Below are positions 15,320 to 54,519 of a stretch of 64,000 bases of DNA, one piece after another. This DNA is from Rhodocollybia butyracea. Lineage: Eukaryota > Basidiomycota > Agaricomycetes > Agaricales > Omphalotaceae. A program made the translations under genes and the position numbers. Location: assembly GCA_015501585.1 (NCBI GenBank), contig JADNRY010000042.1:186001-250000 (forward strand), written 5' to 3'. The notes below the pieces were generated by a model that was not told where the DNA came from, did not search any database, and was given only the letters and a program-made list of their open reading frames with translations. The first letter of the stretch is position 1; each line of letters opens with the position of its first letter.

Positions 15320-15645
15320 GAAGACAGTAATATAACGACCTAACAGACATTAAATCTGACTGTACAAGACATTAAATAGTACTGTCTAGACATGCAGTAT
15401 TACTGTCTCAGACAGTCAAGGTTACTGGCAAAGACAGTAAGGATTCCTGACTGCATTCCCAAGAACTGTCTTTTGACAGTAATCCTTACTGTCAAGACAG
15501 TAGCCATTACTGTCCCAGGGCAGTAGTCATAACTGTCTTAGGCAGTAGCCTTGAGTGTGTCAGGACAGTCATATCTAATGCACAAGGGCAGTTATATCAA
15601 CTGTCTACAAAAATACAGTTATATTGAATGTATCAAATACTATAC
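15320..15645. repeat. Left subterminal ACTGTC/GACAGT array
   Basis: About a dozen copies of ACTGTC or its complement GACAGT occur here. Several are paired head to head as short hairpins, such as ACTGTCTTTTGACAGT and ACTGTCAAGACAGT. The array sits just inside the left TIR of the CACTA-like element and mirrors the array at its right end. Confidence 0.8.
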
Positions 15646-16931: not shown

Positions 16932-17559
16932 GGTGGTAGTAGTCAGAGAGACGCGACGCGTCTGTCAAAAAGTCAATGACGTCATATCAAATGTGGCTGT
17001 GCCACTATTCGAAATCGATAAGTTCGAGCCGAGCTACAGTCTAGCTCTTTTGCCCCACCGTGTCGTATCATTTTGTAGTCTAAAATTCCGTTCGAGTTCT
17101 GAAATTACCATGCTGGCTCTAAGCTGAACCCGATTTCCAACTTCTCTCGGCACTCTGGCTGGTGAAATTGATAGAAATCGTCAATTTCTTTTTGAGATTT
17201 TCCATGATAAGATCCGCAAAGTGTCCTAAGGATAAGATTATGAAGCGGCGATGACGGCCGATCAAAGTGAACTCTGCTTCCAGCTTTTATCGCGTCCCAA
17301 TTTTTGTTTCCCATCCACCCTTCCAAAAATTAACCTGTATACATTGATCGCTCCATCTTGTACCGCCGCCTTTTTTCCCATCCACGCGCCAGGCCAAGCT
17401 TAGGCAAATCCCCTATTATCTACTATTACAGGTATGTGGTTCAATCCATGGACCCGTCACTTTCCGTATGTTATCGAGTTATTGGCCGAACTGGATATTA
17501 TTCCACTCACACTATGTCCTATATTTTAGTTGGCATTTTTAGGTGCTTGTTGCACGCTA

Positions 17560-17825
17560 GTAGAGGTCTAAGTACGCTCAGTAAAACTGATATTAGGATA
17601 CTGACAGTTACAATAACTATTCTACGGTCAGTCCATATAACTGACCCGAAAATATGGGACAGTTATTATGCCTGGCCATATAAATATGGACAGTATATAT
17701 TACTGCCCCACAAAAGGACAGTAGGTATAACTGTCTTCATAGACAGTACATACAACTGTCTTCATAGACAGTACATACAACTGTCCTACAAAAGACAGTA
17801 AAGGTTACTGTATTTTTACAGAATT
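17560..17825. repeat. Right subterminal ACTGTC/GACAGT array
   Basis: About ten ACTGTC/GACAGT words occur here. They include a directly repeated unit, ACTGTCTTCATAGACAGT, spaced by ACATACA. The array is in mirrored orientation to the one at 15320-15645 and ends at the right TIR. Confidence 0.8.
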
Positions 17826-50765: not shown

Positions 50766-51007
50766 AAGCTGGCAGCATGAACTAGGTGTAGACAAGAGAG
50801 GGAGTCTGCTGATAGACTCAAGAGTAGTCAGTCAGGATCGGGAAAGTAGTCTAGCTGTAAAAGAAAGAAGATGACGCGTCTACAGAGCGCGTGATCTTAT
50901 CGAGTAGCAAGCAATGAGAATAAATGAGAAAACACTTAACTTTGAATAAGTATACATGTTGCTACACCGTAGACAACGACGGACACTCGATAAGACTGGC
51001 TCGTTGG

Positions 51008-51254
51008 TGTAACGCCTCCGCCTCTCCATCACCACCACTGACTGTATCCGGCGATACGGTCATCCTAGACGCCGCCGATAGACCAAACGGTCTATCTTAT
51101 CTTTCTATTTATTATTAATTATATAATACAACCGTTACTATTGTACAATTACTTAAGAGTCTAGTTAGTCTTTTACACCGTCGTACACACAATAGTATCC
51201 TATTTGTCGTGTTCACCGGTGTTCTTAAGGACTTTGCCCATAGGGCGTGTTATA
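51008..51254 (+). repeat. 5' LTR of the gag-only element
   Basis: It matches the 3' LTR throughout, apart from three small length changes and six substitutions. It contains the perfect stem ATAGACC/GGTCTAT (four-base loop) and other short hairpins. Ends are TGTAAC and GTTATA. Confidence 0.88.
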
Positions 51255-51284
51255 CTTTTTTGAACATCAAAAAATTACTATTGT

Positions 51285-53723
51285 GTGAATAACACAAAGC
51301 TATTAGCTAAAAACAGTTATACTACCAAGTATAACAATCATTATTCCATCTCGCTTCACAATCTATACAAACCCGCTCCGTTTTTCCTTCTCGCTATATC
51401 ATTTGCTGTCCCCATGACCTCTCAAAATCAATCAGAGAAGTCATATCAGAGTGTGCACAATTGCGCACCTTCCATTTGTGGTGACGTGTCACCACACTCA
51501 ATCTATTCAGTTGCATCAGCGACTCATTCAGTGCGTGCGTCTGAGGGACGGCACTACAGGCAGGACAAGAGTCCACCTAATGAACAGTCTATGACTATTT
51601 GTAAGAAACGGCCAACCCGAGAGGGTTTAAGTGAGATTTCTTCTGCGCTACGAGATGTAGCGGCATCACTCGACAAGAGTACACAAGTACTCAATTGTAT
51701 TCTCAATATAACTGAGAAATGGGATGCATCTAGCATCCGATCTGATGAAGAAAGATCTTCTTCATCAAGAAACAGCAATAGAATCACTATTGCTGCACCC
51801 ACACCGAGACGGCCTACCGTCACACCGCCGGTATTGCACAACGCAACACCATCTGTTCATACTGAGACAAACAACTCAGTACGCCAATGGCGTGAGACTG
51901 TGCCCAAGGCACCGTCAGTCCAACAATCACTGTTGGACGAACAGTATTCACAAGGGATGACCAAGTCACCCTGTCATGTTCCTGTATTCCGACAGGAATA
52001 CACACCAGTGTCAGTAAATATACCAACACCCATCTACACATCCCGCATGAGACAGAGTCCCAATGCAGAGGCAGCATCTCTGACACTGTGAGGTCCCAGG
52101 CCATTACCGGTGACCAAATCTTGCTCACCGCAAAGTGCGGTGAACATTAACAATGAACCGAAGTTACCTCATAACTTTGATCAGGTAGTAGCGATACCAC
52201 CAAAGGAAAGTACAATGTACTTACCTACTGCAAGGGCGCCAGTGGTACCCAATATTATTGCATCTCCGGTAGTTGTACTGAACATTACTGGAAATCAATC
52301 CAGTATGGGACCGCAATGTGGTACCCTTCCGGTAGTTCCTACTACCATACCCATCGCCCTGGCGACACAAAGTGTTGCCCCTCCAGTAGTACACACTACC
52401 GTAAGACTGCCCAGATTGCCACCCAGCAATGCACCAGGGCCAAGTTCAATGCCAGTACCAATGGTATTGGCAGAGTTGCAACCACAGCCGCTTCCGTTGG
52501 GAGTAGCTAAAGATTGGATGAGTTGCATAGCAATTCAACGCCAACATAACACCAGTCTCTGAGATTTTGGATTCACGCCATCTGGGCTTCCCAACCAAAT
52601 GGTGGGATATAATGTTGACGGAATACCCGTTGATAAATTGACTACTCCCAGAGAAATCTGGGATCAATTTTACATTCCACCTGCTGAGTCCTTTCCAGGA
52701 CCAAGCAATAATGCCGGAGCAAAAGTGCCTAGCAAAAAATCCCGTGAAGGGGGGAGGAAGCACAAGAGTGCTAAACCCAAAGGCCGCAAACGCAGCCCGT
52801 GGTCAGATGAATCATTGGACCCAAGTGATACTGAGTCAAATACTGACTCATTGTCTAATGCCTCTTGGCTAGACAAATTTGCTACCCGCAAGGGTAAAAT
52901 TACTAAAAATGAGCAGTGTAAACTACTGCGCTCACTTGCATCTAAGATGCGAGAAACAACAGGTGATGACAAATGTCGTTCCCGATGGAAACACAAGGTA
53001 CACAAAGTGTACCGTAAACAAATTTGAGATAAGGTAGGGAATCCTATCCCTCCCATTGAGAGCTGTAAAGCTCTTAAAGTTCCATCTCCGGAGGTCTATG
53101 ACGGATCTCCGGATGTCGATGTCTTCAAGCGGTGGCTAATGTCACTTCTCCAATGGATGGTAGTCAACCACATGTGCGGTGACGATTACAATGCTACACG
53201 GACTGCCATGCTTGGCATGTTTCTACAGGGCAAAGCCCTTGACTGGTATAACGACGAAGTCGCCGGTATACACCGCACTGTCCTTAAGTGGACATTTGAA
53301 GGCGCCATTATTGGTGACTTTGATTGTTGCATCCAAGCAACGACCATTCATCAAGCTGCACGGCAGTTTGACCTTATTGAGTATTCACCTGATACGGGTG
53401 TGAGGGATTATTATTCCTCACTTACACGATGGGCCTCACAGATGCTCCAAACACCGGATGGCGCAACAATGCGGAAACGGTTCATTGAGGGATTACCCCT
53501 CAATATTATTAGGCAACTCACAAATGAGGGGATCGTTCCAGAGTATGCCAAATTAGAAGTGATGGTCAGAGCCATCACGCGCATTGAGGACCACACGGCC
53601 CTCACTAACTATTATGTCTCATCTAGGAATAGAGATGACAAACAATCATTGGAACACCCTGATGAGTTAGATACTGAGAACATTGAACATGTTCTTGAAC
53701 CTATAAAGGAGGACTCCTCCTAA
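51285..53723 (+). pseudogene. Retroviral-type Gag frame with three in-frame TGA codons
   Basis: A single frame of 813 codons is open except for TGA at 52089-52091, 52560-52562 and 53025-53027; it ends at TAA 53721. No frameshift occurs in 2.4 kb. The likely start is MTSQNQSEKSYQ at 51414. The N-terminal half is Ser/Thr/Pro-rich and disordered; a basic patch (KKSREGGRKHKSAKPKGRKR) precedes a folded C-terminal part. That part has the pattern of the Retrotrans_gag domain of Ty3-like elements: VYDGSPDVDVFKRWLMSLLQ, ATRTAMLGMFLQGKALDWYN, RQFDLIEYSPDTGVRDYYSS, RKRFIEGLPLNIIRQL. All three TGA codons would be CGA (Arg) before one C-to-T change. No zinc knuckle is present. Confidence 0.75.
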
Positions 53724-54252
53724 TGCCCCCGGCGATGAAATGCTTGCCCGGGGCCTATATATACACATATATATTCACCCTACACCTTCAATAAGGTGTA
53801 TATGACCCATATAATAAACTACTCAGTTTATTTTGATGTGTTGGAAAGTCCAAACATCGATTTTGTAGTGGCCTGGAAACAGGTCATCTTGACACGATTC
53901 CAGGCCAATCACGTGTTCAGCGCTAAAGTTAGCGCTTACTGTTGCTTATACGCCTATGCGACATTTCCTGAACCCGGATTCTCAATGAGAATCCTCTTCA
54001 AGTGCTACTCGGAAACTTCCGAGTCTGCGCGTTGAACATTCGGACATTTCCGAATCAAATCATGCTCTAGTGGTACGCCCCGCTATCGTTTGATTCGGAT
54101 AAGCCCGAAAATCTGATGCGCCGCATCAATTACATCCCGTACTTGATGCGGGATCATTTTAGTTAATCCAAAACTAAAAATTGTTTGGATGGTGATGATG
54201 TCATTACCATTTGTACGATTTACATCCCTGATGTTAATCTGGTGGGGGAGGG
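53724..54252 (+). other. Non-coding hairpin-rich 3' segment of the element
   Basis: Between the Gag stop and the 3' LTR is a run of near-contiguous stem-loops. Examples are TACACCTT/AAGGTGTA (53781-53800), AATAAACT/AGTTTATT (53813-53832), AGCGCTAA/TTAGCGCT (53919-53936), GGATTCTC/GAGAATCC (53976-53994), ACTCGGAA/TTCCGAGT (54007-54024), ATTCGGA/TCCGAAT (54038-54055) and TTTTAGTT/AACTAAAA (54157-54179). A polypurine tract ends the segment. Confidence 0.85.
54240..54252 (+). other. Polypurine tract
   Basis: GGTGGGGGAGGG directly abuts the 3' LTR, the expected site for plus-strand priming in LTR elements. Confidence 0.7.
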
Positions 54253-54514
54253 TGTAACGCCTCCGCCTCTGCCTCTCCATCACCACCACTGACTGTATCT
54301 GGCGATACGGTCATCCTAGACGCCGCCGATAGACCAAACAGTCTATCTTATCTTTCTATTTATTATTAATTATATAATAAAACTGTTACTATAAGTATTG
54401 TACAATTACTTAAGAGTCTAGTTAGTCTTTTACACCATCGTACACACAATAGTATCCTATTTGTTGTGTGAGTCACCGGTGTTCTTAAGGACTTTGCCCA
54501 TAGGGTGCGTTATA
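54253..54514 (+). repeat. 3' LTR of the gag-only element
   Basis: Compared with the 5' LTR it carries an extra GCCTCT-type repeat, an ATAAGT insertion and a GAG insertion. It also has five transitions at CpG sites (CCGG to CTGG, ACGG to ACAG, CCGT to CTGT, CCGT to CCAT, TCGT to TTGT) and one C/A difference. All the CpG changes are in this copy. Confidence 0.88.
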
Positions 54515-54519
54515 GTTGG

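What the first reader, a model, noticed from the sequence alone, without database searches (positions are those of the whole stretch)
51008..54514. A retroelement whose whole sequence is a chain of short perfect hairpins
Reading along the element I found stem-loop after stem-loop, in the LTR, in the Gag frame and in the 3' non-coding part. Perfect stems of 8-10 bases with 2-7 base loops include: TGTGGTGAC/GTCACCACA (51477-51496), TGATGAAGAA/TTCTTCATCA (51743-51767), CAGCAATAG/CTATTGCTG (51773-51795), GTCCAACA/TGTTGGAC (51918-51938), TGTATTCC/GGAATACA (51983-52002), TCACCGCA/TGCGGTGA (52125-52143), ATTGAGGG/CCCTCAAT (53484-53504), TACACCTT/AAGGTGTA (53781-53800), AATAAACT/AGTTTATT (53813-53832), AGCGCTAA/TTAGCGCT (53919-53936), GGATTCTC/GAGAATCC (53976-53994), ACTCGGAA/TTCCGAGT (54007-54024) and TTTTAGTT/AACTAAAA (54157-54179). 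Dozens more have 5-7 base stems, some with GNRA loops (AACCC-GAGA-GGGTT, TACCC-GCAA-GGGTA, TCCCAGA-GAAA-TCTGGGA). For random DNA a simple estimate (7 loop sizes x 4^-8 per position) gives fewer than one stem of 8 bases in 3.5 kb. The copia element and host genes I read here do not show this. A Gag reading frame overlaid on a continuous RNA structure suggests that the RNA is the selected object: packaging, protection, or escape from silencing.
Basis: partly seen in the sequence, partly recalled or inferred. Interest (0 to 1): 0.93.

Follow-up and report, generated by a model that had tools for sequence, protein, structure and literature searches.

The report
Retrotransposon RNA folded into hairpin chain
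A small parasitic DNA element that seems to carry only a capsid-type gene is written so that nearly its whole RNA copy is predicted to fold into more than a hundred short hairpins, more tightly than the RNA viruses it was compared with, which suggests that the folded RNA itself is what evolution has kept.

Summary
The element (51008-54514) is an old copy of a young, multi-copy LTR retrotransposon family with one ~780-aa Gag-like frame. The 13 listed stems are where stated; perfect stems of 6 bp or more number 48 against 7.0 in dinucleotide shuffles. In three open-frame copies the excess survives shuffles keeping protein, codons and dinucleotides (33-35 against 6-7; local folding z -19.4 in L014). 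Mean MFED is 40-42%; the rest of the window gives 1.7%, phages MS2/GA/Qbeta 27/23/33%. Non-CpG changes are 0.4-0.7 times as frequent in stems as in unpaired bases (8 copies, 6 at p<0.05); substitutions cost less structure than if placed at random; the least-paired stretch lies just before the Gag start codon (13 of 14 copies), which points to the RNA. Against: compensatory pairs are few (0-3 per comparison). Most likely the RNA is kept as a hairpin chain for Gag-driven packaging and compaction; shielding from host surveillance is a close rival. Function is untested. Some pol-bearing families here show the trend weakly (MFED 9-15%).

The parts
51003..51007 (.). target-site duplication GTTGG, left copy (right copy 54515-54519)
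   Evidence: sequence; 5-bp duplications read by eye at 26 of 28 other aligned copies in the flanks printed (not at L031 and L037)
51008..51254 (+). 5' LTR (TGTAACG...GTTATA), itself with hairpins
51255..51413 (+). leader; starts with a perfect hairpin 51256-51274 where a primer-binding site would lie; no TGG-type tRNA primer site seen by eye
51336..51395 (+). least-paired 60-nt window of the whole element, shortly before the Gag start codon
   Evidence: (0 of 3448 windows lower)
51414..53723 (+). Gag-like frame, broken in this copy by in-frame TGA stops at 52089, 52560 and 53025; terminal stop at 53721. The homologous frame is open over 780 aa in other copies
53217..53495 (+). weak match to Retrotrans_gag (PF03732), below its cut-off
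   Evidence: E 0.069; E 0.12 in L014
53724..54240 (+). 3' non-coding part with dense hairpins; about 53722-53965 does not align to the main subfamily (it is shared with L051) yet is also a hairpin chain
54241..54252 (+). polypurine tract GGTGGGGGAGGG
   Evidence: sequence
54253..54514 (+). 3' LTR, 92.8% identical to the 5' LTR over 251 columns
51008..54514 (+). chain of 117 hairpin domains (span limit 40 nt), 57.5% of bases paired in the predicted fold
   Evidence: perfect stems listed

Best explanation
A non-autonomous, Gag-only LTR retrotransposon (TR-GAG-like) whose transcript is kept folded by selection as a string of about 110-117 short hairpins covering LTR, coding and non-coding parts, with its least-paired stretch at the ribosome entry site. 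Shown by computation: the hairpin excess, its independence of codon choice, conservation of pairing, the unpaired stretch before the start codon. Inferred: that the selected molecule is the sense RNA (about 0.85). Most likely job (about 0.4-0.5): many similar small-loop hairpins act together as dispersed binding sites for Gag, so that this RNA is compacted and packaged into particles, in competition with the RNA of a Pol-supplying partner, much as the stem-loops of ssRNA phages do for their coat protein.
For: Codon-, protein- and dinucleotide-preserving shuffles: stems >=6 bp 33-35 vs 6.2-6.9; local energy of the L014 frame -753.9 vs -422.8 sd 17.1 (24 shuffles), z -19.4 at span 30, falling to about -14 for long spans (6 shuffles at full span), so the structure is mostly local. 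MFED 41.9% (61 fragments, minimum 30%), 42.2% and 39.8% for L014, L009 and the window copy; 37.8-39.3% against a synonymous null in L014, L009, L032. Same method on ssRNA phages, of which MS2 has dispersed coat-binding stem-loops (PMC4751978, passages): 22.8-33.0%. Loops are small (tri/tetraloops 62% vs 37% sd 6%) and A-rich (0.457 vs 0.385 sd 0.016). Non-CpG divergence in stems is 0.4-0.7 times that of unpaired bases in 8 of 8 copies, p<0.05 in 6. 12 of 12 copies compared keep more structure than the same substitutions placed at random (z -2.5 to -9.2). Single-copy variants hit stems at 54-64% (stems are 58-59% of sites), variants shared by copies at 36-53%. Two 3' segments that do not align are both hairpin chains. 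Least-paired 60-nt window lies just before the Gag ATG in 13 of 14 copies. Gag itself looks constrained: N:S 134:46 single vs 75:45 shared at non-CpG sites, p 0.03.
Against: All structure is predicted; no probing, expression or binding data. Few compensatory pairs, and double changes that break a pair are as common. At four-fold sites without CpG no single copy reaches p<0.05, and at codon positions 1-2 without CpG L036 goes the other way (0.0108 unpaired, 0.0123 stem). Of 45 fixed subfamily differences 20 fall in stems and 12 of these break the reference pair. G.T and A.C mismatches in stems are equally common (14 vs 16), not what simple RNA thermodynamics predicts, though MS2, GA and Qbeta show the same (9:9, 4:5, 9:7). 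GNRA loops 4 of 27 against 1 of 27 for the reverse-complement class is suggestive only. Gag lacks a zinc knuckle motif and no partner with the same LTR was found. In Ty1 and Ty3 internal sequence is dispensable when proteins come in trans (PMC4974528, passages).
Confidence: 0.5

Rival explanations
1. Same RNA-level selection, other job: genome-scale ordered RNA structure that shields the transcript from host RNA surveillance (RNAi machinery, RNA-dependent RNA polymerase, nucleases). Stems of 6-12 bp are too short to be Dicer substrates (recalled) but leave little free RNA for guide pairing.
For: Matches the GORS picture: several hundred consecutive stem-loops through coding sequence, indifferent to which bases pair (PMC7642675, passages); every one of 61 fragments of L014 is raised; 3' segments that do not align are both structured.
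Against: Does not explain why a Gag-only element should far exceed the pol-bearing elements sampled (MFED 8.5-15% in the most structured ones) that face the same host. Copies carry a CpG transition load, suggesting that DNA-level silencing acts anyway (inference).
Confidence: 0.3
2. Mutational origin: reverse transcriptase or replication template switching repeatedly turns imperfect palindromes into perfect ones; hairpins accumulate without function.
For: Strand-symmetric G.T/A.C mismatches; hairpins in every part of the element. In two of the clusters (both in the window copy) the changed stretch has a 5-nt reverse-complement match nearby where the reference has none.
Against: 46 clusters of >=3 substitutions in 5 copies compared with L014 (copies share ancestry) show no longer match than those 5 nt (clusters longer than a few bases could hardly score); by eye many changes lie in loops and linkers; the unpaired stretch before the ATG; 16 of 20 other Gag stretches have local z above -3.
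Confidence: 0.08
3. Selection on single-stranded DNA (minus-strand cDNA) or DNA cruciforms rather than RNA.
For: Hairpins are as stable on the antisense strand in absolute energy (-774.8 sense, -794.2 antisense).
Against: The least-paired stretch sits just before a start codon, which matters to mRNA only; synonymous-null z is -22.6 sense vs -15.5 antisense, although the baselines differ by G-U potential.
Confidence: 0.1
4. Chance, base composition, codon usage or simple repeats.
For: The 8-mer repeat count is mildly raised (101 vs 68.5 in mononucleotide shuffles).
Confidence: 0.01

Closest known systems
TR-GAG elements (non-autonomous LTR retrotransposons with gag only; described in plants)
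   Same: LTRs, target-site duplications, polypurine tract, one Gag-like frame, no Pol found
   Different: Gag barely recognisable and without zinc knuckle motif; partner not found; the titles and abstract starts listed do not speak of RNA structure (papers not read)
[quoted passage not shown]
   Same: continuous local stem-loops through coding and non-coding RNA, MFED raised everywhere
   Different: an LTR retroelement, and MFED about 42% against 15% (SARS-CoV-2) and a recorded maximum of 23.4% given in PMC7642675 (passages); shuffling details differ
ssRNA phages (MS2, GA, Qbeta) with dispersed packaging stem-loops
   Same: many short hairpins along a 3.5-4 kb coding RNA; same equality of G.T and A.C mismatches
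   Different: more perfect stems here (45 vs 7-23) and higher MFED; no known cognate binding loop; DNA phase in the life cycle
Ty1/Ty3 genomic RNA
   Same: LTR retrotransposon RNA that is both message and genome
   Different: stable structured regions make up at most about 30% of Ty1/Ty3 RNA (PMC11381356, passages); cis signals lie near the ends (PMC4974528, passages)

Membership tests
LTR retrotransposon | paired LTRs starting TG, with target-site duplication | tested here: met
   LTR pair, GTTGG duplication; 26 of 28 other aligned copies have 5-bp duplications
LTR retrotransposon | polypurine tract before 3' LTR and primer-binding site after 5' LTR | tested here: inconclusive
   PPT present at 54241-54252; no canonical tRNA primer site recognised by eye
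TR-GAG | encodes Gag and no protease/RT/integrase | tested here: inconclusive
   one ~780-aa frame fills most of the internal part and has no pol domain by Pfam, but its only retroelement hit is Retrotrans_gag below cut-off, so the Gag call is weak
TR-GAG | mobilised by an autonomous partner | tested here: inconclusive
   LTR pairs 96.4-100% identical in the 28 other aligned copies imply recent mobility; 17 other LTR hits are solo LTRs, truncated or same-family ends; only 40 of 418 LTR candidates were scored
GORS | MFED raised along the whole coding RNA | tested here: met
GORS | individual pairings poorly conserved between relatives | tested here: inconclusive
   pairings are largely conserved within the family, but relatives are at most about 8% apart; the 3' segment that does not align is structured differently
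dispersed packaging signals | stem-loops bind the cognate capsid protein | not testable with these tools
   needs binding data
Ty3/gypsy | RT-RNaseH-integrase of the gypsy type | tested here: not met
   no pol domain in the 780-aa frame and no second frame of 200 aa or more outside it in 29 sequences; the LTR ends resemble those of a gypsy family with RT, RNase H and integrase domains (TGTAACG...CGTTACA)

The most novel reading that the evidence does not exclude
A Gag-only retroelement has become a hyperparasite whose whole genome is one continuous, multivalent packaging signal: hairpin number and density along the message, not one psi site, win encapsidation, giving an RNA-phage-like genome architecture in a eukaryotic retrotransposon. 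Some pol-bearing families of the same genome show the same trend more weakly (MFED 8.5-15%).
Probability: 0.3. Interest if true: 0.92.

Novelty: new variant of a known kind. Interest (0 to 1): 0.82.

Why it matters
It extends pervasive local RNA structure from RNA viruses to an LTR retrotransposon, at a strength above the viruses compared here. If the RNA is the selected object, retroelement message and genome can be one folded, particle-ready string. It also offers a natural test of whether such structure serves packaging or evasion, because a young family (at least 58 loci) and more weakly structured families lie in one genome.

Tried and rejected
Composition, codon choice and repeats as the cause: rejected (8-mer repeats only mildly raised). 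Template-switch origin: no clear footprints. G.T versus A.C as a strand test: 14 vs 16 seemed to speak against RNA, but the phage controls show the same, so it is uninformative. Sense versus antisense energies: confounded by G-U potential. Protein relatives in the 5.8-billion set: none at E <= 0.001 among 7991 scored candidates; viral contigs: none. Rfam: three matches at E <= 1, all far below their gathering scores. Structure of the C-terminal piece: mean pLDDT 37.8, unusable, so no fold search was made. Autonomous partner with the same LTR: not found. Pol-bearing family A (L077, L078) as a homologue: no tblastn match to the 780-aa frame at E <= 1.

Rows dropped: 7 of 35 fetched copies (truncated, nested or cut: L011, L012, L023, L029, L038, L042, L043) before the first alignment (28 copies plus the window); 4 of 13 further copies (L045, L046, L055, L056) before the second (38 rows, counted; L051 only in part). 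One search uses only columns where the reference copy carries the commonest base. Searches used 12, 6, 8 and 14 copies. Other Gag stretches: 20 of 147 matches, picked by hand to spread over the score list.
Full report
WHAT IS THERE. The stretch 51008-54514 is an LTR retrotransposon: LTRs of 247 and 262 bases (TGTAACG...GTTATA), a 5-base target duplication GTTGG on both sides, and a polypurine tract GGTGGGGGAGGG before the 3' LTR (LTR identity 92.8%). A DNA search of the window's own assembly (95.6 Mb, 1381 contigs, unnamed) gave 72 matches with only 36 of 410 candidates scored; a search with the 780-aa protein gave 63 matches, by my count at 58 loci, 58 of 719 candidates scored, so copy numbers are lower bounds. 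The 28 other aligned copies are 96-98% alike on average; in 27 of them both LTRs are whole enough to compare over about 250 bases and are 96.4-100% identical (the cut copy L031: 98.6% over 141). The window copy is about 92% like them. A second copy, L051, shares the window copy's special 3' segment, so there are at least two subfamilies.

CODING. Seven of the 28 aligned copies (L009, L014, L015, L020, L031, L032, L034) have a single open frame of 780 aa, and L010 and L016 have 781 and 803. The window copy has the same frame, 51414-53723, with in-frame TGA stops at 52089, 52560 and 53025. The only hint of identity is a sub-threshold Retrotrans_gag match near the C-terminus (E 0.069 and 0.12); there is no zinc knuckle motif, and the most basic stretch (net charge +12 in 60 residues) lies at residues 481-540. 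No relative was found in the large protein set. Non-synonymous variants are rarer among shared than among single-copy variants (non-CpG 75:45 against 134:46, p 0.03; all sites p 0.0018), so the protein was probably under constraint while the family moved.

THE HAIRPINS ARE REAL AS SEQUENCE. All 13 stems of the finding are correct, and stems of 8 bp or more number 17 against 0.45 in shuffles. The proper null for a coding RNA keeps protein, codon counts and dinucleotides: stems >=6 bp in three open frames are 33, 35, 35 against 6.2, 6.9, 6.8, never above 12 in 30 shuffles each. Local folding energy of the L014 frame is -753.9 against -422.8 (sd 17.1) kcal/mol at a pairing span of 30, z -19.4 (24 shuffles); larger spans give z -16.5, -13.6 (24 shuffles) and -14.1 (6 shuffles). 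The predicted structure is thus mostly a string of small hairpins: 114 domains of mean length 24 in L014, 117 in the window copy with 57.5% of bases paired. LTR, leader, frame and 3' part all take part.

HOW STRONG. With 350-base fragments and dinucleotide shuffles, mean MFED is 41.9%, 42.2% and 39.8% (L014, L009, window copy; 61, 61 and 64 fragments) and 1.7% for 120 fragments of the rest of the window, whose highest value is 41% at 17500; against synonymous shuffles 37.8-39.3% (19 fragments each of L014, L009, L032). The paper on coronaviruses reports 15% for SARS-CoV-2, 7.5-10.7% for HCV and 23.4% as the highest recorded (PMC7642675, passages only); its shuffling differs in detail from mine. 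My own protocol gave 27.1% (MS2), 22.8% (GA) and 33.0% (Qbeta), and local z -21.5, -11.0, -15.9 against -35.2 (L014) and -28.6 (window copy).

IS PAIRING SELECTED? (i) Relative to L014, non-CpG divergence in stems is 24/1221 against 44/826 in unpaired sites for L049 (p 4e-5), and lower in stems in 8 of 8 copies tested (ratio 0.4-0.7), at p < 0.05 in six. At four-fold sites the direction is the same in 8 of 8, with p below 0.05 in four when all sites are counted and in none when CpG sites are left out; at codon positions 1-2 without CpG one copy (L036) goes the other way. The reference's own mutations bias this measure towards unpaired sites. (ii) A less biased test compares single-copy with shared variants: stems hold 58-59% of sites, 54-64% of single-copy variants, and 36-53% of shared variants; Fisher p from 0.001 to 0.11 over eight combinations of reference and filter. 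(iii) Placing each copy's substitutions at random on L014, matched for base and CpG context, costs more energy than seen: e.g. L049 -761 seen, -634 (sd 14) expected; z -2.5 to -9.2 in 12 of 12 copies. L014 is itself a mutated copy, which inflates this. (iv) Against: only 0-3 compensatory pairs per comparison, 0-3 double changes that break a pair, slid controls 0-2 kept; and of 45 fixed subfamily differences 25 are at 943 unpaired and 20 at 1382 stem sites, 12 of the latter breaking the reference pair. At 4-8% divergence many compensations are not expected (inference).

RNA OR DNA? In 13 of 14 copies the least-paired 60-nt window of the whole element is the one just before the Gag start codon; in the 14th (L049), 2 of 3290 windows are lower. 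The copies are related, so this is not 13 independent observations, yet in L049 and L048 that stretch is among the most changed (clusters at alignment columns 362-405). A ribosome entry stretch matters to mRNA only. The G.T/A.C test was tried and is uninformative because known RNA genomes behave the same.

OTHER RETROELEMENTS. Of 20 other Gag stretches (of 147 matches) 16 have local z above -3, and four do not: L073 -6.4, L071 -3.4, L074 -3.4, L069 -3.1. MFED is 13-15% in L069, L071, L073 and L097, 10.7% in L070, 8.0% in L061, 2.8% in L074, and 11.5% and 8.5% along the two longer stretches L077 and L078. L077 and L078 carry protease, RT and RNase H domains besides Retrotrans_gag and a zinc knuckle, and L078 also integrase domains; that family's LTR has ends like ours (TGTAACG...CGTTACA), but no similarity to our 780-aa frame was found. 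So moderate structure exists in some pol-bearing families, and the Gag-only family is the extreme among those sampled.

MECHANISM. Committed reading: transcript folded as beads on a string, with small A-rich loops displayed, bound in many places by Gag and packaged with Pol supplied in trans. Shown: folding propensity, its conservation, its gap at the start codon. Inferred: RNA as target, Gag as reader, competition with a partner. Shielding from host RNA surveillance is the closest rival and could act together with packaging.

LITERATURE. Searches of the open library for structure in retrotransposon RNA, hairpin-rich elements, gag-only elements and Ty1 RNA probing (top 8-20 papers listed each) showed no title or abstract start describing an LTR retrotransposon with a continuous hairpin chain; two more searches were for GORS and phage packaging. 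Only listings were seen except for PMC7642675, PMC4974528, PMC4751978 and PMC11381356, of which passages were seen. Ty3 and Ty1 RNA have at most about 30% stable structured sequence. That TR-GAG elements are defined in plants is recalled and fits the listing.

Noticed in passing
window 15340-15640 and 17580-17820: Two clusters of short ACTGTC/GACAGT units in both orientations, at the two ends of a ~2.5 kb stretch, like subterminal repeats of a DNA transposon; they give the only other 500-base window with z below -4 (z -7.3 at 17501).
   Followed up: partly
L069, L071, L073, L097, L077, L078: Some other retroelement stretches, two of them shown to carry pol domains, have moderate RNA structure (MFED 8.5-15%), comparable with structured RNA viruses.
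   Followed up: partly
window 44060, 50736, 55436, 55788, 60889: The same tRNA T-arm-like string GGGATTTGAACCCA occurs five times in one orientation, three of them close to the element, while ARAGORN finds no tRNA: tRNA relics or a tRNA-derived short element.
   Followed up: no
L020 and L022: Two copies on different contigs with the same 8 flanking bases on each side, target duplication CCCGC, and 99.7% identity: one insertion assembled twice or duplicated.
   Followed up: no
all aligned copies: C-to-T and G-to-A changes at CpG dominate the variants (e.g. 49 of 72 single-copy C>T are at CpG), which suggests cytosine methylation of inserted copies.
   Followed up: partly
window 51255-51275; L096 after its LTR: No TGG-type tRNA primer site seen; both this family and family A have TTTTGAAC close after the 5' LTR, in ours inside a perfect hairpin. 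Priming mode unclear.
   Followed up: no
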